A program made the translations under genes and the position numbers. 64,000 bases of DNA from Actinomycetota bacterium (GTDB lineage Bacteria > Actinomycetota > Thermoleophilia > Solirubrobacterales > Solirubrobacteraceae): positions 1 through 64,000 of the forward strand of contig JAFDWH010000016.1 in NCBI GenBank assembly GCA_018268595.1, given 5' to 3'. Numbering within the stretch: the first letter of the stretch is position 1; each line of letters starts with the position of its first letter. This document shows, piece by piece, positions 43,115 through 51,111 of the stretch. The notes beneath the pieces were generated by a model. The model was given only the letters and a program-made list of their open reading frames with translations. It made no database searches and was not told the origin of the DNA.

Positions 43115-45034
43115 ATGCTCCAGGTCGGCGAGACGCTCGCGGGCTACCGCGTCGAGGAGATGGTCGGGATCGGCGGCATGGCGATCGTCTACCGCGCACG
43201 CCAGCTCTCGCTCGACCGCGCGGTCGCCCTCAAGGTCCTCTCCTCGACGCTCGTCGGCAACCGCGCGTTCCGCGAGCGCTTCCGGCTCGAGGGACGCCAT
43301 GCGGCCGCGCTCGAGCACCCCAACATCATCCCGGTCTACGAGGCCGGCGAGTCGAACGGGTTGATGTTCATCGCGATGCGGCTGGTCGACGGGCCGACGC
43401 TCGCCGAGTTGACGACGAGCCCCGGCATCAGCGGCGGGGAGACGCTGCGGATCCTCGGCGCGATCGCCGGCGCGCTGGACGCCGCGCACGGCGCCGGCCT
43501 CGTCCATCGCGACGTGAAGCCGCAGAACATCCTGCTGACCCGCGGCGAGCACCCGTACCTCACCGACTTCGGCATCACGAAGGGGCCGCAGAGCGCCGGG
43601 CTGACGCGCACCGGCGACTTCGTCGGCAGCCTCACCTGCGTGGCGCCCGAGCAGATCGAGGGCAAGGAGGTGACGGCCGCGACCGACGTGTACGCGCTCG
43701 CCTGCGTGCTGTTCCACTGCCTCACGGGAACCCAGCCGTACCCGCGCGACACCGACGCCGCGCTGATGCATGCGCATCTCACCGCTCCGCCACCGACGTT
43801 CGCCGACCTGGGGATCGACGCGCCGCCCGCGCTCGACGCCGTCTTCCGCGCCGGCCTCGCGAAGGACCCTGCGCAGCGGCCGCCGTCGGCGTCGGCGCTC
43901 GTCGAGGCGTGCACCGCGGCGTTGGCGGAGCTCGGCGACGCGACGCTCCGGCGCAGCCCCGCCCTGCCGCCGCCAGCCGACGCAGCGGAGGAGCCGGCGG
44001 CGCCCGCTGCACAGGCGGCTGCGCCGCCGCCGACACCGCAGGCGCCGGTGTCCCCGCCGTCGCCGGTGTCCCCCACGGCCGCCGACCACCGCCACGCCGC
44101 CGCACCGGCGTCAGCGCCGGCTGCGGCGTCGTCCGCCCGCCGGCCGACGCGACACCTGCTCGCAGCCGGCGCGCTGCTCGCCGCGCTCGCGCTGGCGCTC
44201 GCCGGATGGGCGCTCGGCCACGGCGCCGACGCGCCGCCGCCCGGCGTCGCCCGCTCGGCCGCGGTCCAGGTGCGCTACGAACGCAAGGTCTGGGCTCCCG
44301 CGGAGGCCCGCGGCGCGATCGACGGCCTGCCGCTGGAGCACCCGGTCGCGCTGCGCAGCGCGGACGGCACGCGGCTGCTCGCGGGGCGCCTGCACGCTCC
44401 CGCCCCCGGCTTCGACCCGCTGCCCGCCGCGCTCGCGCGCCGGCTCGCCGCGCAGGCACCGGCGCGCCGCGTCCACTGGGGGGCGCGCGCAGCCGTCGTG
44501 CACGCCGGCCGCGTGCGCGCCGGTGGCGCGCTGTGGCTCGCGCTGCTGCCGGACGAGCGCGGCTGGACCGCCGTCGCCTGCGAGGCGCCGCGTGCACGCG
44601 CGAGCGCCGGCTGCGAGACGGTCGCGACGGCGCTGCGCGCGCGCGACGCGGAGCCGGTCCCGCTGGGTCCCTCGGCCGCCACGGCGGCCGCGGTGAACGC
44701 CGCCGTCAAGCGAATCGACGCGGCCGCGCGCACGGGGCTCGCAGCGCATGCGACGACGGCGCGCGCCCGCGCCGCCCGCGGGCTCGCGCGCGCGTACGCC
44801 GCCGCAGCGCACGACCTCGGGCGCTTCCACGCGCGCGCGCAGGAGCACGCGCTGGTCGGCGCGCTCACGGCGGCGCTGCACAGCCAGGCGGGCGCGTTCG
44901 CGCGCCTCGCGCGAGCCGCCGCGCGCACGGAGCGACCGGCATACAATCAGGCGCGTCTCGCACTGAGAAGCGGTGCAAAACGGCTCGACGCGGCGCTGCG
45001 CGCGTTCGGGCAAGCCGGCTACCGCACCCGCTGA
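43115..45034 (+). CDS. Transmembrane Ser/Thr protein kinase (PknB-type)
   Basis: 639 aa. Complete Hanks-type kinase at about 10-270: Gly loop VGIGGMAIVY, Lys40 (VALKVL), Glu59, HRDVKPQN (131-138), DFG (151-153), then the activation segment with a possible phospho-site (GLTRTGDFVGS) and APEQIEG. Pro-rich linker, membrane helix (LLAAGALLAALALALAGWALG, about 350-370) and a 250-residue extracytoplasmic domain homologous to that of the pseudokinase. No PASTA repeats. Candidate targets include the FHA-bearing secretion ATPase and the GarA-like protein. Confidence 0.93.
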   Translation: MLQVGETLAGYRVEEMVGIGGMAIVYRARQLSLDRAVALKVLSSTLVGNRAFRERFRLEGRHAAALEHPNIIPVYEAGESNGLMFIAMRLVDGPTLAELTTSPGISGGETLRILGAIAGALDAAHGAGLVHRDVKPQNILLTRGEHPYLTDFGITKGPQSAGLTRTGDFVGSLTCVAPEQIEGKEVTAATDVYALACVLFHCLTGTQPYPRDTDAALMHAHLTAPPPTFADLGIDAPPALDAVFRAGLAKDPAQRPPSASALVEACTAALAELGDATLRRSPALPPPADAAEEPAAPAAQAAAPPPTPQAPVSPPSPVSPTAADHRHAAAPASAPAAASSARRPTRHLLAAGALLAALALALAGWALGHGADAPPPGVARSAAVQVRYERKVWAPAEARGAIDGLPLEHPVALRSADGTRLLAGRLHAPAPGFDPLPAALARRLAAQAPARRVHWGARAAVVHAGRVRAGGALWLALLPDERGWTAVACEAPRARASAGCETVATALRARDAEPVPLGPSAATAAAVNAAVKRIDAAARTGLAAHATTARARAARGLARAYAAAAHDLGRFHARAQEHALVGALTAALHSQAGAFARLARAAARTERPAYNQARLALRSGAKRLDAALRAFGQAGYRTR

Positions 45035-45692: not shown

Positions 45693-46147
45693 CCGTCGGC
45701 AGCGTCGCCGGCCACCGCCCGCTCCAGCCCCTCCAGCGCCTCGCCGAGCTGCCGCCGCGCCGCACGCCCGAACAGGAACGGCACGAGCCGCGACCAGCCG
45801 CGCAGCTGCTGGCGCAGCTCGATCGTCGCCGCCGTCGCCGCGCCGCCGTCCGCCGGCGCCAGCTCGATCGCCGTCTGCGCCCGCGCCAGCAGCCCCTCGA
45901 ACGGGGTCCCCGCCAGCTCCTGCTCCCACCGCAGCAGCCGCAGCTCGACCGTCTCGACGATGCGGAAGTCGGCGCGCACGGGCCGCCCGCGCGCGCTGAT
46001 CATCACCTGCGTGAAGCGGCCGTCGCGGGCGCCCTCGACGCGCTGCACGCGCGGCCACCAGCGCGCCTGGTGCCACGGGTCCGCGACGACGTCCCAGACG
46101 ACCTGCGGCGAGGCGGCGAGCGTGCGGCTGACGCGCGTCGTCGGCAA
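45689..46147 (-). CDS. SRPBCC (START-like) family protein
   Basis: 152-aa helix-grip protein of the polyketide cyclase/dehydrase type: TRVSRTLAASPQVVWDVVADPWHQARWWPRV at the N-terminus and a long C-terminal helix (GRAARRQLGEALEGLERAV). It probably binds a hydrophobic ligand. The start is TTG; a GTG-like start further in is possible. The 3' end overlaps the collagen-like gene on the opposite strand by 4 nt. Confidence 0.8.
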   Translation of the reverse strand: MPTTRVSRTLAASPQVVWDVVADPWHQARWWPRVQRVEGARDGRFTQVMISARGRPVRADFRIVETVELRLLRWEQELAGTPFEGLLARAQTAIELAPADGGAATAATIELRQQLRGWSRLVPFLFGRAARRQLGEALEGLERAVAGDAADG

Positions 46148-46170
46148 GGCGCGCGCGTCCCTTCCGGCGT

Positions 46171-46962
46171 TCAGCCCGCGATGTTGCGCAGGTCGCGTAT
46201 CAGCAGCAGGTGCTTCAGGTAGGTCGCGACGGCGGCGAGGTTCTCGAGCGTCTCGACCGCCTCTCTGCGCCGCTCCGGGTTGCGCGAGCGCAGCGCCGGG
46301 GCGAGGATCTGCTGCAAGAGCGCCGCCTCGCGGTCGGCGGAGGTGCGGAAGACGCGCAGGTTGCGCCCGGCGACGCCGTACCTGGCCAGCTCGGCGACCG
46401 CGCGCACGATCTCGCGCTCGGTCTCGTCGTAGTAGCGCACGCCCGCGCGCTGCTCGCCTCTGATGACGCCGAACTCCTCCAGCTCGTGCACGAGTCTCGG
46501 CTGCGCGCCGGTCTCCTCGACGACGTCGTCGAGCGAGTAGACCGCGCCCGGCCCCTTCACCGCGACGGCCGTGCGCCGCAGGTGGCGGATGTCCGGTCTC
46601 TGCGAGGCGGCGGCGCCGCCGCTGCCGACGTCGCCGTCGGCGGCGCGGCCGCCCGCCAGCTCCTGGCGGATCACGCGCAGCGGCAGGAACTCGTCGCGCT
46701 GCAGCCGCAGGATCGTGCGCAGCCGCTGCACGTCGTTCTGCGTGTACAGGCGGTAGCCGCCCTGCGTGCGGCGCGGGGTCAGCAGCTTCTGGTCCTCGAG
46801 GTAGCGGATCTTCGAGATCGAGATGTCGGGGAACTCCTGCTTGAGCGCCTTGCAGACCGCGCCGATCGTGAGCGACTTCTGGCGCGGACGCGGCGCCTCC
46901 TCGGCGGCCTGCTCGCCGGCCGCCGGCTCGACGCTCGTGTCGGGAGTCGGTGCGGACGCCAT
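46171..46962 (-). CDS. ftsR: MerR-family regulator, FtsR/Rv1828-like
   Basis: 263 aa. N-terminal MerR winged HTH at about 30-105 (LTIGAVCKALKQEFPDISISKIRYLEDQKLLTP, YTQNDVQRLRTILRLQ), then a second domain of about 130 residues starting VYSLDDVVEETGAQPRLVHELEEFGVI. This two-domain form and its position directly behind a GarA-like gene match Mycobacterium Rv1828 and Corynebacterium FtsR, which regulate cell division and metabolism. TGATG overlap with the GarA-like gene. Confidence 0.82.
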   Translation of the reverse strand: MASAPTPDTSVEPAAGEQAAEEAPRPRQKSLTIGAVCKALKQEFPDISISKIRYLEDQKLLTPRRTQGGYRLYTQNDVQRLRTILRLQRDEFLPLRVIRQELAGGRAADGDVGSGGAAASQRPDIRHLRRTAVAVKGPGAVYSLDDVVEETGAQPRLVHELEEFGVIRGEQRAGVRYYDETEREIVRAVAELARYGVAGRNLRVFRTSADREAALLQQILAPALRSRNPERRREAVETLENLAAVATYLKHLLLIRDLRNIAG

Positions 46963-47432
46963 CAGCGCGACAGGTAGGCGAGCTTGTACTTGCCGATCTG
47001 CAGCTCGTCGCCGTCCTGCAGCCGGTGCGACTCGATCCGCGCGCGGTTCACGTAGGTGCCGTTGAGCGAGCCGCAGTCGTCGAGGTACCAGTCGTCGCCG
47101 CGGCGCACGAGCAGTGCGTGGTCGCGCGAGACGGTCACGTCGTCGAGGAACACGTCGCTGTCGGGGCGGCGGCCGATCGTGAGGCGCTCGCCGTCGATCG
47201 CGAAGCTCTCGCCGGCGCGCCCGCCGCCGGAGCGGATCACCAGCGCGGCGCCACGCGCGACGACCTGGTCGAGCTGCACCGGCTCGATCTCGCCCGTCTC
47301 GCCGATGCGGTACGTGGCGGTCGTCTCGTGGTTCGCGCCGCCTTCGGCGACGGCCAGGAAGGCGCCGCACTTCTGGCAGTAGTTGGCTCCGATCGCGTTC
47401 GCGAAGCCGCACTCGGGGCAGTGGAGCGCCAC
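46962..47432 (-). CDS. garA: GarA-like FHA protein with N-terminal zinc ribbon
   Basis: 156 aa. Zinc ribbon Cys5/8/19/22 (CPECG, YCQKCG), then HETTATYR with the T-T pair at 37-38 that corresponds to the kinase-phosphorylated ETT motif of GarA/OdhI, and an FHA domain at about 80-150 (LTIGRRPDSDVFL, SRDHAL, LNGTYVN). GarA/OdhI inhibit 2-oxoglutarate dehydrogenase when unphosphorylated and fold onto themselves when phosphorylated. The zinc ribbon is an addition to the mycobacterial form. GTG start with AGGAGG upstream. Next to an ftsR-like gene, as in mycobacteria. Confidence 0.85.
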   Translation of the reverse strand: MALHCPECGFANAIGANYCQKCGAFLAVAEGGANHETTATYRIGETGEIEPVQLDQVVARGAALVIRSGGGRAGESFAIDGERLTIGRRPDSDVFLDDVTVSRDHALLVRRGDDWYLDDCGSLNGTYVNRARIESHRLQDGDELQIGKYKLAYLSR

Positions 47433-47466
47433 GGGTCCTCCTGCGCTGGGCCGGCGCGGCCGCGCG

Positions 47467-47730
47467 CTACTCCTCGTCTTCCGGCTTCGGCCCGCGGCCG
47501 GCGAGGATGTTCGTGAGCTTCTCGACGTCCGCGCCGGAGAAAACGTCCTCCCCGCCTTCGTGCTTCTTGCGCAGGCGGTTGACCAGCTCGGCGCGCAGGA
47601 TGTCGATCTTGCCGTGGAGGATGCGGCGTCTATAGCTGATTTCCAGCTCCTCCTCGGTGAGCTGCTGGATGAGGTCCTTCAGCTCCTGATCGCTCAGCGA
47701 GCCAAGGTCCGGGAAGGTGTCCATCGTCAC
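47467..47730 (-). CDS. rsiG: RsiG-like c-di-GMP-binding anti-sigma protein
   Basis: 87-aa antiparallel coiled-coil protein. The c-di-GMP signature of RsiG, E-x3-S-x2-R-x3-Q-x3-D, is present as E28-S32-R35-H39-D43 (ELEISYRRRILHGKID) with His for Gln. In Streptomyces, RsiG holds the sporulation sigma factor WhiG when loaded with c-di-GMP; single-motif homologues act as homodimers. The partner sigma is not in the window. The GTG start has GGAG 7 nt upstream; an ATG two codons later is the alternative. Confidence 0.82.
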   Translation of the reverse strand: MTMDTFPDLGSLSDQELKDLIQQLTEEELEISYRRRILHGKIDILRAELVNRLRKKHEGGEDVFSGADVEKLTNILAGRGPKPEDEE

Positions 47731-47794
47731 GCTGTGTCTCCGATCCTCATGCTGGGACCGGCGAGTATAGCCGCGCGCGAGCGCAACCTCAACG

Positions 47795-48463
47795 TCAGCT
47801 TGAGGGTCTGGCTCGCAGCGCGCGACGGCCGTCGCGGACGTACAGCGCGGTCGCCGTCAGCGCGAGCGCCAGCCCGGCGTACAGCAACACCTCGCCGAGC
47901 GTCTGCAAGCCGCACAGCGGGAAGAACAGGCCGCCCATCACGGGCGCGACGGCGAGCCGGCCCGGCCAGTTGATGCGGACGTCGACGCCGCGCTTCAGCC
48001 CCTGCCGCGCGAGCGCGAGCATCAGCAGCTCGCGCGCGACCAGCACCGCGAGCGCCCAGCGCGGCAGCAGGCAGAAGTGCCAGTTGACGATCACGCCGCT
48101 GATCACGAGCAGGCGGTCGGTGACCGGGTCCATCAGCGCGCCGAGGCGGCTGTACTGGCGCGTGATGCGCGCGGCCATCCCGTCGGCGTAGTCGCCCCAG
48201 CCGATGACCGCGAACAGGATCGCCTGCGGCGCCCCGACGCCGTCGTCGCTGGAGAGCGCGACCACGAGGAAGACGGGGATCAGCAGCAGGCGCGCGAAGC
48301 CGATCGCGTTGGGGACCGTCCACGGGTTGAGCGGGGCGCCCGCGACGGTCGCGGCCGGCGGCGGGCCGGAGCGGTCGAGCCCGAGCAGGCGGCGGACCGT
48401 GAGCGGGCGTGCGGCCCCCGGGTCGGCGGGCTCCGCCGGTCTCCCTACGGGAGCGTCCGCCAC
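47795..48463 (-). CDS. pgsA: CDP-alcohol phosphatidyltransferase (PgsA-like)
   Basis: 222-aa membrane enzyme. The CDP-alcohol transferase motif is complete: DGMAARITRQYSRLGALMDPVTD (D-G-x2-A-R-x8-G-x3-D-x3-D). About five membrane helices. Probably phosphatidylglycerophosphate synthase, transferring phosphatidyl from CDP-DAG to glycerol-3-phosphate. The GTG start lies inside the end of proS (19-nt overlap), giving a short Pro-rich N-terminus before NPWTVPNAIGFARLLLIPVF. Confidence 0.87.
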   Translation of the reverse strand: MADAPVGRPAEPADPGAARPLTVRRLLGLDRSGPPPAATVAGAPLNPWTVPNAIGFARLLLIPVFLVVALSSDDGVGAPQAILFAVIGWGDYADGMAARITRQYSRLGALMDPVTDRLLVISGVIVNWHFCLLPRWALAVLVARELLMLALARQGLKRGVDVRINWPGRLAVAPVMGGLFFPLCGLQTLGEVLLYAGLALALTATALYVRDGRRALRARPSS

Positions 48464-50127
48464 AGGTCGAGCACCGCCTCGGCAGCGCCGTCGAGCGGGA
48501 CGCTGCGGGTCTCGCGGCCGCGGCGCACCTGCAGCTCCAGCTCGCCGCCGGACAGCGTGCGCTTGCCGACGGTGATGCGCAGCGGGCAGCCGAGCAGCTC
48601 GGCGTCGGCGAACTTCTGGCCGGGCGCGAGGTCGCGGTCGTCGTAGAGCACGTCGGCGCCGAGCGCGCGCAGCTCGCCGTAGAGCCGCTCGGCGTACGCC
48701 TGCTCCTCGCTGCCGGCTCTGCCGAGCGAGACCAGCTCCAGCTCGAACGGCGCGAGCGCGCGCGGCCACGCGATGCCGGCTTCGTCGGCCGTCTGCTCGA
48801 CGGCGGCGGCGACGATGCGCGCCGGGCCGATCCCGTAGGAGCCCATCACGATCGGGCGGCTCGTGCCCGACTCGTCGAGGTAGGTCGCGCCGAGCGGCTC
48901 GGAGTAGCGCGTGCCGAGCTTGAAGATGTTGCCGACCTCGATCGCCGCCTCGATGCGGATCGCGTTGCCGCCGACCGTGTCGCCCGCCTCGACCGTGCGC
49001 ACGTCGGCGCGCTCGAACGCGAAGTCGCGGCCCGGCTCGACGCCGCGCAGGTGGAAGTCGGGGCGGTTGGCGCCAGTCACGTAGCCGCCGTCGGTCACCG
49101 CGTCGTCGAGCAGCACGGGCGCGTTCGCGCCGACCGGGCCGATGTAGCCGGCGGGGCCGATCTTCTGCGCGAACTCGTCGGGCTGCGCGGGACGGCAGGG
49201 CGCGCCGAGCGCGTTGCGCAGCTTGATCTCGTTGACGCGGTGATCGCCGCGCACGACGACGAGCACGAGCCCGCGGCCCTCGGCGATCACCGGGTAGGCC
49301 TTCAGCAGCGCGCCGTGCGGGACGCCGAGGTTGGCCGCGACCTCCTCGACGGTGGTGAGGCCGGGCGTGTGGACCTCCTCCGGCTTGTCGAGCGGGGCGG
49401 GCAGCGCGACCGGCTGCGGGTCGGCGCTCGCGATCTCGACGTTGGCGGCGTAGCCGGGCGCGAGCGCGACGGCGTCCTCGCCGGCGGCGCACGGCGCCAT
49501 GTACTCGTGCGCGCCGGAGCCGCCCATCATCCCGACATCGGACTCGACGCGGTACCACTCCAAGCCGGTGCGCTCGAAGATGCGGTCGTAGGCGCCGACG
49601 TGCTTCTCGTAGGAGGCGTTCAGGCCCTCCTCGTCGCGGTCGAAGGTGTAGGAGTCCTTCATGATGAACTCGCGCGTGCGCAGCACGCCGGCGCGCGGAC
49701 GCGGCTCGTCGCGCTCCTTGACCTGGAAGTGGTAGAGGATCAGCGGCAGGTCGCGGTAGGAGCGCACGAGCTGCGCGACGTGCGTCGTGACGACCTCCTC
49801 GTGCGTCATCGCGAGCACCATCTCGGCGCCCTTGCGGTCCTGCAGCTTAAACAGCTCGTCGATCCCGTAGCGGCCGGTGCGCTTCCAGATCTCGCCGGGG
49901 TTGAGGACCGGCATCAGCAGCTCCTGCCCGCCGATCGCGTTCAGCTCCTCACGGATGATCTGCACGACCTTCTGATGCGCGCGCCAGCCGGCCGGCATCC
50001 ACGTCCACAGCCCGGTGCCGAGCTGGCGCACCAGCCCGGCGCGGACCATCAGCTTGTGCGAGATCGCCTCCGCATCCGCGGGGGCCTGCTTCTCGGTCGG
50101 CAGCAGATAAGTGGACAGGCGCGTCAT
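48445..50127 (-). CDS. proS: Prolyl-tRNA synthetase
   Basis: 560-aa class II synthetase. Motif 1 region LVRQLGTGLWTWMPAGWRAHQKV, motif 2 RYRDLPLILYHFQVKERDEPRPRAGVLRTREF, motif 3 VMGSYGIGPARIVAA. The editing (INS) insertion lies between motifs 2 and 3, as in bacterial-type ProRS. The C-terminal anticodon domain ends the protein. TAGGCT stands 9 nt before the ATG (probable leaderless promoter). Confidence 0.96.
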   Translation of the reverse strand: MTRLSTYLLPTEKQAPADAEAISHKLMVRAGLVRQLGTGLWTWMPAGWRAHQKVVQIIREELNAIGGQELLMPVLNPGEIWKRTGRYGIDELFKLQDRKGAEMVLAMTHEEVVTTHVAQLVRSYRDLPLILYHFQVKERDEPRPRAGVLRTREFIMKDSYTFDRDEEGLNASYEKHVGAYDRIFERTGLEWYRVESDVGMMGGSGAHEYMAPCAAGEDAVALAPGYAANVEIASADPQPVALPAPLDKPEEVHTPGLTTVEEVAANLGVPHGALLKAYPVIAEGRGLVLVVVRGDHRVNEIKLRNALGAPCRPAQPDEFAQKIGPAGYIGPVGANAPVLLDDAVTDGGYVTGANRPDFHLRGVEPGRDFAFERADVRTVEAGDTVGGNAIRIEAAIEVGNIFKLGTRYSEPLGATYLDESGTSRPIVMGSYGIGPARIVAAAVEQTADEAGIAWPRALAPFELELVSLGRAGSEEQAYAERLYGELRALGADVLYDDRDLAPGQKFADAELLGCPLRITVGKRTLSGGELELQVRRGRETRSVPLDGAAEAVLDLWRTLP

Positions 50128-50193
50128 CGGGCGGGAAGCCTAGTGGCTCGACCTCCCGCCCGCCTCCTGTCCGTCGACCTGTCGCGATACCGC

Positions 50194-51111
50194 CTACGTC
50201 GTCGCTCTCAGAGTTCCAGAGAATCTTCTTTCTGCGATTCTCACGGTCAACGTGTCGCTCACAGCCCTCCCGGCTTCGGTCGGCGCCGAGAGAATGACGT
50301 TGATGTTGCAGGTGCCTCTGGCTTCCAACGTCCTCGATCTGCACCCGTTCGGGTCCGTTATCGCGAAATATCTCTGCGATGTCACGACGATTTCTTCGAT
50401 TCTCCCCCCAGCGGACGAACCAATCGTGACGGTTCTCTGCACGAGTTCCCCAGCTCTGACGGTGCCGAACACAAGTGGATTTGGGGTGAAACCGTTTATA
50501 ACTTCGTTACCAGGTAGGAACGTTACTACTTGACTCGGACTCGGGGCCGAAAACGAAACGGTCGGTAGGTATACGAAGCCGCATTCAAAAAGCGGCATCG
50601 ACCCTCTGCCGAGGGCATATTCGTTGTTCCCTAGCCCTTCGAGTGGAAATGTGACTCCCAAACCTTCAAACCTACATTCTTCACCAGTGCTCAATCTTGC
50701 CCTGATACTGACGATAAAAAGGCTGCTCAGCTGTAGCATAGCTCCAGCTGGCGCCGTGTCGCTCGACGAGGACCACCTCATTGACACCGGGAAGCCCAAG
50801 ATCGCGGTGATCGAACCCCTCGTACAGCTACCAGAACTCAGGCTTGAGAGACTTCCAAAGGACGGTTCTTCTCCTTCTCTGACAGCCACTAGTCCTTCGG
50901 CGAATGAACCGCTCAATGTGATAGGACATTCCACCACCACCGTGCCTTCTCCAGATCTCGTAACTCTGAAGGTGCCCGTTTGAGTCACTGATCTACCTGG
51001 GCTAAACGACATACCAGTGAGAGCCCATGCGCCTGGCACCTGAGCCGCCATGACGACGAGCAGGACCAACAGCAGCAGCATGCTCCAGCGACGAAGACGA
51101 TTTCCTCGCAT
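50194..51111 (-). CDS. Secreted protein with Hydin-like (choice-of-anchor) domain, atypical composition
   Basis: 305 aa. Signal peptide (MLLLLVLLVVMAAQVPGAWA) and a mature beta-rich protein. The C-terminal about 100 residues match ASH/Hydin-type Ig-like domains (PLVFGTVRAGELVQRTVTIG; RGTCNINVILSAP). Conserved cysteine pairs are spaced through the body. The start is backed by AAGGAGG. GC content is strikingly lower than in the neighbours on both sides, and codon use includes many A/T-ending codons, so recent acquisition is likely. Function unknown. Confidence 0.75.
   Translation of the reverse strand: MRGNRLRRWSMLLLLVLLVVMAAQVPGAWALTGMSFSPGRSVTQTGTFRVTRSGEGTVVVECPITLSGSFAEGLVAVREGEEPSFGSLSSLSSGSCTRGSITAILGFPVSMRWSSSSDTAPAGAMLQLSSLFIVSIRARLSTGEECRFEGLGVTFPLEGLGNNEYALGRGSMPLFECGFVYLPTVSFSAPSPSQVVTFLPGNEVINGFTPNPLVFGTVRAGELVQRTVTIGSSAGGRIEEIVVTSQRYFAITDPNGCRSRTLEARGTCNINVILSAPTEAGRAVSDTLTVRIAERRFSGTLRATT

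What the first reader, a model, noticed from the sequence alone, without database searches (positions are those of the whole stretch)
47467..47730. RsiG with His in place of the signature Gln, embedded in a pgsA-rsiG-garA-ftsR run
E28-S32-R35-H39-D43 fits the c-di-GMP motif except Q to H. The gene lies between pgsA and a GarA/FtsR pair, a setting different from a sigma-factor operon. If it still binds c-di-GMP, a sigma factor elsewhere in a non-sporulating lineage would be controlled by it.
Basis: partly seen in the sequence, partly recalled or inferred. Interest (0 to 1): 0.55.

Follow-up and report, generated by a model that had tools for sequence, protein, structure and literature searches.

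The report
FtsR-boxed operon for c-di-GMP anti-sigma RsiG
The gene is an ordinary small RsiG, a c-di-GMP-dependent brake on a sigma factor, and its histidine is normal for its lineage; what looks new is that it sits in an old, conserved operon with garA and the cell-division regulator ftsR, whose promoter carries what looks like FtsR's own binding site.

Summary
Confirmed: 47467-47730 (minus strand) encodes an 87-aa single-motif RsiG with E28-S32-R35-H39-D43. The His is no deviation: 85 of 88 readable single-motif RsiGs of the class have it, and the His-type RsiG of Conexibacter woesei is known to bind c-di-GMP and WhiG (PMC8325347). The window's genome shares its genus with Conexibacter arvalis; its RsiG is 84-87% identical to two congeners. 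A WhiG elsewhere (contig C10) keeps the three sigma2 c-di-GMP contacts; the flagellar paralogue does not. The gene order is not odd: 118 of 122 genomes with single-motif RsiG have garA and ftsR downstream, against 0 of 34 twin-motif genomes outside the class. New here: the rsiG promoter overlaps a palindrome matching the C. glutamicum FtsR site (17/25); it is the genome's only exact match to that site's core pattern, and a weaker one precedes ftsZ. Such boxes recur upstream of rsiG across the class, hardly ever upstream of garA, ftsR, pgsA or proS. Most likely rsiG-garA-ftsR is an FtsR-controlled operon.

The parts
47467..47730 (-). rsiG, single-motif RsiG-like anti-sigma factor, 87 aa (85 aa if the start is ATG 47724)
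47602..47649 (-). codons 28-43: c-di-GMP motif E(X)3S(X)2R(X)3H(X)3D
   Evidence: sequence; motif definition from PMC8325347
47764..47792 (-). promoter-like TTGAGG-17-TATACT before rsiG; the only promoter-like site in 46000-50500 (0.1 expected)
47784..47808 (-). FtsR-type box GACCCTCAAGCTGACGTTGAGGTTG overlapping the -35 hexamer and the pgsA stop codon; 17/25 to the C. glutamicum ftsZ FtsR site
46962..47432 (-). garA/odhI-like gene: N-terminal zinc ribbon, ETT motif, FHA domain; AGGAGG before its GTG
   Evidence: the meaning of ETT is recalled
46171..46962 (-). ftsR, MerR-type regulator; its ATG overlaps the garA stop (TGATG)
47795..48427 (-). CDP-alcohol phosphatidyltransferase (pgsA-like); domain begins near 48322
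48445..50127 (-). proS, prolyl-tRNA synthetase, upstream neighbour

Best explanation
The gene is the organism's single-motif RsiG. Two copies form an antiparallel coiled coil that binds a c-di-GMP dimer and holds the WhiG-type sigma factor (contig C10, 136419-137096) inactive when c-di-GMP is high. It is the first gene of an operon rsiG-garA-ftsR with its own housekeeping-type promoter. FtsR, the product of the third gene, binds the palindrome over the -35 hexamer and so sets the level of RsiG, GarA and itself, as it also controls ftsZ. Shown here: family, motif, partner gene with contact residues, gene order and its conservation, promoter and box and their conservation. Shown by others for relatives: c-di-GMP binding, dimer, WhiG binding; FtsR binding to this type of site at ftsZ in C. 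glutamicum. Inferred: that the genes are co-transcribed, that FtsR binds this box, and the sign of control (repression is my guess, because the box covers the -35).
For: RsiG family and motif; 84-87% identity to congeners L044 and L043; published His-type RsiG of C. woesei binds c-di-GMP and WhiG. WhiG: NCBIfam equivalog 373.6 against 343, with K52, G56, R57 aligned to Sv WhiG K57, G61, R62; FliA in the flagellar cluster has K, Y, K. RsiG and FliA/WhiG co-occur in 148 of 199 class genomes, RsiG alone 8, sigma alone 7, neither 36. 13 GGDEF domains in the genome. garA and ftsR downstream in 85 of 89 class and 33 of 33 other single-motif genomes, 0 of 34 twin-motif genomes outside the class. Box: the only exact match in the genome to the core pattern; an 18/25 site 179 nt before the presumed ftsZ start; at least 16/25 upstream of rsiG in 47 of 89 class single-motif genomes (shuffles 0.28%), 10 of 33 other single-motif (2.4%), 3 of 12 class twin-motif, 0 of 34 other twin-motif; controls in the class garA 1 of 100, ftsR 0 of 97, pgsA 0 of 69, proS 0 of 42.
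Against: No binding was measured for these proteins or this DNA. Among the nine strong FtsR ChAP-Seq regions of C. glutamicum none lies at odhI/ftsR, so control of its own operon is not known for FtsR. Many class members score under 16/25 (42 of 89) and the deepest single-motif families mostly score 12-14, near background. The yardstick is one published site, not a matrix. The WhiG regulon could not be found: 17 promoter-pattern hits against 10 for the reversed pattern, none with fewer than 2 mismatches. RsiG without WhiG in 8 genomes (6 of them under 90% complete) and WhiG without RsiG in 7. A fold search with the single-chain model found no match with E <= 0.001.
Confidence: 0.6

Rival explanations
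1. The anti-sigma switch is real, but the palindrome is the site of another dimeric regulator, or only a conserved promoter; the garA-ftsR neighbourhood is inherited gene order without regulatory meaning.
For: No FtsR binding at odhI/ftsR in C. glutamicum. The right half of the box contains the -35 hexamer, which would be conserved anyway.
Against: The left half CCCTCAA is conserved too, with fixed spacing; the core pattern taken from the C. glutamicum site has its only exact genome match here and a weaker one before ftsZ, the known FtsR target; upstream regions of four neighbouring genes nearly always lack it.
Confidence: 0.3
2. The His variant has lost c-di-GMP binding, and the protein is a c-di-GMP-independent anti-sigma factor or a relic.
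For: RsiGCw binds more weakly than RsiGRr (25 against 12 uM); the Gln is the residue first described.
Against: The other four motif residues are kept; His is kept in 85 of 88 class and 26 of 33 other single-motif genomes and in 80 of 80 named loci; RsiGCw with His binds at 1.7 uM with WhiG.
Confidence: 0.04
3. RsiG here holds the flagellar sigma factor (contig C5) rather than WhiG.
For: Both are FliA/WhiG-type and the C5 factor lies among flagellar genes.
Against: C5 lacks the G and R c-di-GMP contacts and misses the WhiG equivalog cut-off (208.9 of 343).
Confidence: 0.06

Closest known systems
RsiG of Conexibacter woesei (RsiGCw; PMC8325347)
   Different: Binding was measured for RsiGCw, not for this protein; garA does not occur in the text and no FtsR box is described there in what I read.
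RsiG of Rubrobacter radiotolerans (PDB 7lq2-7lq4)
   Different: Gln in the motif in 7 of 10 f22 members.
RsiG of Streptomyces venezuelae (PDB 6pfj, 6pfv)
   Same: Fold family, motif, WhiG partner.
   Different: Twin-motif monomer, sporulation role; twin-motif rsiG outside the class is not next to garA-ftsR (0 of 34).
odhI-ftsR cluster and the FtsR site at ftsZ in Corynebacterium glutamicum (PMC6683498)
   Same: garA/odhI-ftsR pair; similar 25-bp inverted repeat at ftsZ.
   Different: The paper calls the region upstream of odhI variable; no rsiG is mentioned in the passages read, and no FtsR peak at its own operon.

Membership tests
RsiG, single-motif type | Sequence family RsiG (PF22802) | tested here: met
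   72.6 bits against cut-off 27
RsiG, single-motif type | One E(X)3S(X)2R(X)3[Q/H](X)3D motif in a small protein | tested here: met
   E28 S32 R35 H39 D43, 87 aa; the Q/H form is stated in PMC8325347
RsiG, single-motif type | Long coiled-coil helix with Gly-linked N- and C-terminal extensions | tested here: met
   Model with helices 12-56 and 64-75, mean pLDDT 84; monomer model only
RsiG, single-motif type | Antiparallel homodimer | not testable with these tools
   Only single chains can be modelled; the PDB fold search gave no match with E <= 0.001
RsiG, single-motif type | Binds c-di-GMP | not testable with these tools
   Shown for RsiGCw and RsiGRr in PMC8325347
RsiG, single-motif type | WhiG in the genome with the three sigma2 c-di-GMP contact residues | tested here: met
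RsiG, single-motif type | WhiG-type promoters before type IV pilus or c-di-GMP genes (as in Rubrobacter) | tested here: inconclusive
   Pattern hits hardly above the reversed control, 17 against 10; their neighbours were not examined
FtsR regulon | FtsR equivalog encoded | tested here: met
   217.9 bits against 150
FtsR regulon | FtsR-type 25-bp inverted repeat before ftsZ | tested here: met
   18/25, 179 nt before the presumed ftsZ start codon
FtsR regulon | FtsR bound at the target promoter | not testable with these tools
   Needs EMSA or ChIP-seq

The most novel reading that the evidence does not exclude
In the deep-branching actinobacteria rsiG, garA and ftsR form one ancient self-regulated circuit: the cell-division regulator FtsR sets the dose of the c-di-GMP-armed anti-sigma factor and of the 2-oxoglutarate-flux switch GarA, so division, carbon/nitrogen state and the WhiG programme are tied together. 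The tie was cut in the lineages where rsiG became twin-motif and left the locus.
Probability: 0.5. Interest if true: 0.65.

Novelty: new member of a known kind. Interest (0 to 1): 0.45.

Why it matters
The protein itself adds little to what is published. Its operon does: it gives a concrete candidate link, the first that I found, between FtsR, whose signal is unknown, GarA, whose tie to FtsR was only suspected from gene order, and c-di-GMP control of a sigma factor. The FtsR-type box at the rsiG promoter makes this testable with one gel shift and one deletion.

Tried and rejected
Promoter search for the WhiG regulon in the own genome gave no clear signal (17 hits against 10 for the reversed pattern).

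A monomer AlphaFold model is a long helix and its Foldseek search gave nothing useful.

Independent origin of twin-motif RsiGs inside the class (f4 and f7 keep halves most like local single-motif RsiGs; two of three f4 proteins keep an internal ATG before the second half) looks likely from identity and free trees. It is not proven: the large quick tree was badly searched (trees with the C-halves held together scored better), and on the smaller careful tree AU tests did not reject a shared C-half origin (p 0.30 and 0.25). The f10 twins stay unplaced; one test on them did not finish.

Rejected: His as a degenerate site; FliA as partner; the gene run as unusual.

The first genome pattern for the FtsR box had a wrong spacer (8 instead of 7 N) and was redone. 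The 18-position consensus was read off these sequences themselves, so its score is circular; searches use the C. glutamicum site instead. In one search random 250-nt stretches gave at least 16/25 in 8 of 682. Library searches: RsiG with FtsR, 0 papers; 'RsiG-like', 0 papers; RsiG with Thermoleophilia, 1 paper; RsiG with GarA by word start, 55 papers, 20 listed, none relevant by title; FtsR, autoregulation, c-di-GMP, any two, 191 papers, 10 listed, none holding FtsR. Papers: PMC8325347, Results read in full plus passages; PMC6683498, section 11 plus passages; PMC13232838, abstract and outline only.

Full report
What is there. The ORF at 47467-47730 lies on the minus strand and encodes an 87-residue protein. 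Pfam calls it RsiG (PF22802, E 2.1e-20) and the nearest solved chains are the RsiG of Rubrobacter radiotolerans and of Streptomyces venezuelae. It is the only RsiG in the genome. Upstream are proS and a pgsA-like gene, downstream a zinc-ribbon/FHA protein of the GarA/OdhI type and FtsR. garA has AGGAGG before its GTG, and the ftsR ATG overlaps the garA stop.

The histidine. Loci were fetched for 101 of the 156 class genomes with a match (156 of 199 searched) and for 67 other genomes of the phylum sample (200 of 296 with a match, the class included). One RsiG per genome was read. Of 89 single-motif class genomes one (G192) is cut by a contig end; 85 of the other 88 have His at the position (80 with Asp and 5 with Glu at the last motif residue) and 3 have Gln. 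One of the 80 (G009) is listed under an overlapping chance match and I counted it by its second, true motif. Of 33 single-motif genomes outside the class, 26 have His and 7 Gln, all 7 in one family (f22). All 80 kept loci of the named collection (80 of 174 relatives) have His. PMC8325347 reports that His replaces Gln often, that RsiG of Conexibacter woesei has His, and that it binds c-di-GMP at 25 uM alone and 1.7 uM with its WhiG. The window's genus contains Conexibacter arvalis: contig length and coordinates of G111 fit NZ_JACHNU010000004.1. The window protein is 87% identical to that RsiG and 84% to the one in G198, a genome whose size I recall as that of C. woesei. So binding is expected, by homology; it was not tested here.

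The partner. The genome holds two FliA/WhiG-type factors over the family cut-off. The one on C10 meets the WhiG equivalog cut-off (373.6 of 343), and its K52, G56, R57 align with the c-di-GMP contacts K57, G61, R62 of S. venezuelae WhiG. The one on C5 lies among flagellar genes (named by eye) and has K, Y, K there. In 40 further class genomes the best sigma factor keeps the K-G-R contacts in 36 (three K-G-K, in the f4 genomes; one R-G-R), whether or not RsiG was found, so those residues do not separate the RsiG-less genomes. RsiG and the sigma family co-occur strongly (148 both, 8, 7, 36; n 199; Fisher p 8e-25; relatedness not corrected). Thirteen GGDEF domains suggest that c-di-GMP is made. 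What WhiG controls here is unknown.

The neighbourhood. Of 122 genomes with single-motif RsiG, 118 have garA and ftsR downstream on the same strand: 85 of 89 in the class and 33 of 33 outside it, in 15 families. The four exceptions are G114 and G117 (garA but no ftsR in range), G192 (contig end) and G073 (the scored copy is a paralogue; its other copy has both). Of 12 class genomes scored as twin-motif, 9 have both, one (G135) has garA and then the contig ends, and two (G083, G125) carry an off-locus twin besides a copy at the garA locus. Of 34 twin-motif genomes outside the class, none has either gene in range; nine of these stretches reach only about 1.2-1.4 kb downstream. The garA/odhI-ftsR pair is known to be conserved in actinobacteria, and the region upstream of odhI is described as variable (PMC6683498). 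The words garA and FHA do not occur in PMC8325347. All 80 named loci have rsiG-garA-ftsR, 77 of them with the pgsA-like gene on the same strand in the stretch. That gene is close by in the window's order and in f5, about 2.6 kb away in f11 and some of f7, and not in range in f6, f8 and f9.

The operator. The only promoter-like site in 46000-50500 is TTGAGG-17-TATACT before rsiG (0.1 expected). A palindrome, CCTCAAGCTGACGTTGAGG, covers its -35. The 25-bp FtsR site of the C. glutamicum ftsZ promoter (PMC6683498) aligns with it without gaps, 17 of 25, the best match in the 64-kb window (next 15). A pattern of the core of that site (ACCCTNAA, 7 bases, TTGAGG; up to two mismatches) has one exact match in the genome, at this promoter; its mirror image counts as the one-mismatch hit, and 13 two-mismatch sites follow; the reversed control pattern has 8 hits. 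One of the two-mismatch sites lies before ftsZ, FtsR's known target, 179 nt before the presumed start codon and 18 of 25 to the published site. Upstream of rsiG a match of at least 16/25 occurs in 47 of 89 class single-motif genomes (0.28% in dinucleotide shuffles), 3 of 12 class twins (8 of 12 at 15 or more), 10 of 33 single-motif genomes outside the class (2.4%) and 0 of 34 twins outside the class (0.6%). Before garA it occurs in 1 of 100 class genomes, before ftsR 0 of 97, before pgsA 0 of 69, before proS 0 of 42; outside the class before ftsR 3 of 33 and before garA 0 of 33; in random stretches 8 of 682. Related genomes are not independent, but the contrast between genes of the same genomes is not touched by that.

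Reading. The protein is a new member of a known kind. The operon with its FtsR-type box is the part that I found in no paper of the library. The sign of control is open: the box overlaps the -35, which favours repression, but MerR-type regulators can also activate. In C. glutamicum FtsR has no strong peak at its own operon, so this control may be particular to the lineages that keep rsiG there.

Side results. Twin-motif RsiGs occur at the garA locus in three families of the class (f4, f7, f10), where PMC8325347 knew only single-motif forms; whether these duplications are independent is unsettled. RsiG-like helices also occur fused to Clp_N domains and to RsbW-like ATPase domains, and as short two-motif proteins.

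Noticed in passing
L374 2320-3174 +, L373 2426-3688 - (G077); L377 1967-2671 +, L376 2492-2920 - (G178): RsiG-like domain at the C-terminus of ClpC-type N-domains (Clp_N), in one G077 copy with an intact E-S-R-H-D motif: a possible c-di-GMP-sensing Clp adaptor.
   Followed up: partly
L145 1411-2133 - (G122), L148 1477-2784 - (G055), L149 817-1662 + (G073), L383 458-1642 - (G109): RsbW-like HATPase_c_2 domain with a C-terminal RsiG-like helix in family f5; the RsiG match is over the Pfam cut-off in G122 and G073, below it in G055, and not listed by Pfam for G109 (own profile 41 bits).
   Followed up: partly
L384 111-356 -, L385 2390-2791 -, L386 2495-2716 -, L387 2354-2719 +, L388 531-890 -: Short proteins with two RsiG-like motifs about 35 residues apart, like a bare hairpin, in family f7; L388 was not run against Pfam and L387 is just under its cut-off.
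   Followed up: partly
L079 3959-4573 -, L074 3731-4540 +, L075 3959-4555 - (f4); L083-L087 (f7); L231, L232 (f10): Twin-motif RsiGs at the pgsA-garA-ftsR locus inside the class; in L079 and L075 the second half still begins with ATG after a GGGAG, like a fossil or internal start.
   Followed up: partly
L096 3609-3881 -, L187 3686-3931 -, L190 5090-5389 +, L200 3359-3646 -: A small gene (81-99 aa) between rsiG and garA in several deep lineages; the three searched (not L190) had no Pfam match over cut-off and no NCBIfam match.
   Followed up: partly
window 43115-45034 +: ORF that reads like a Ser/Thr protein kinase (by eye) close to the garA operon; the GarA-like protein carries an ETT motif of the kind that such kinases modify (recalled), so it could be its kinase.
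   Followed up: no
L234, L233 (G083, G125): Off-locus twin-motif RsiGs, closest to L213 of family f18 outside the class, in genomes that also keep a copy at the garA locus: probably acquired.
   Followed up: partly
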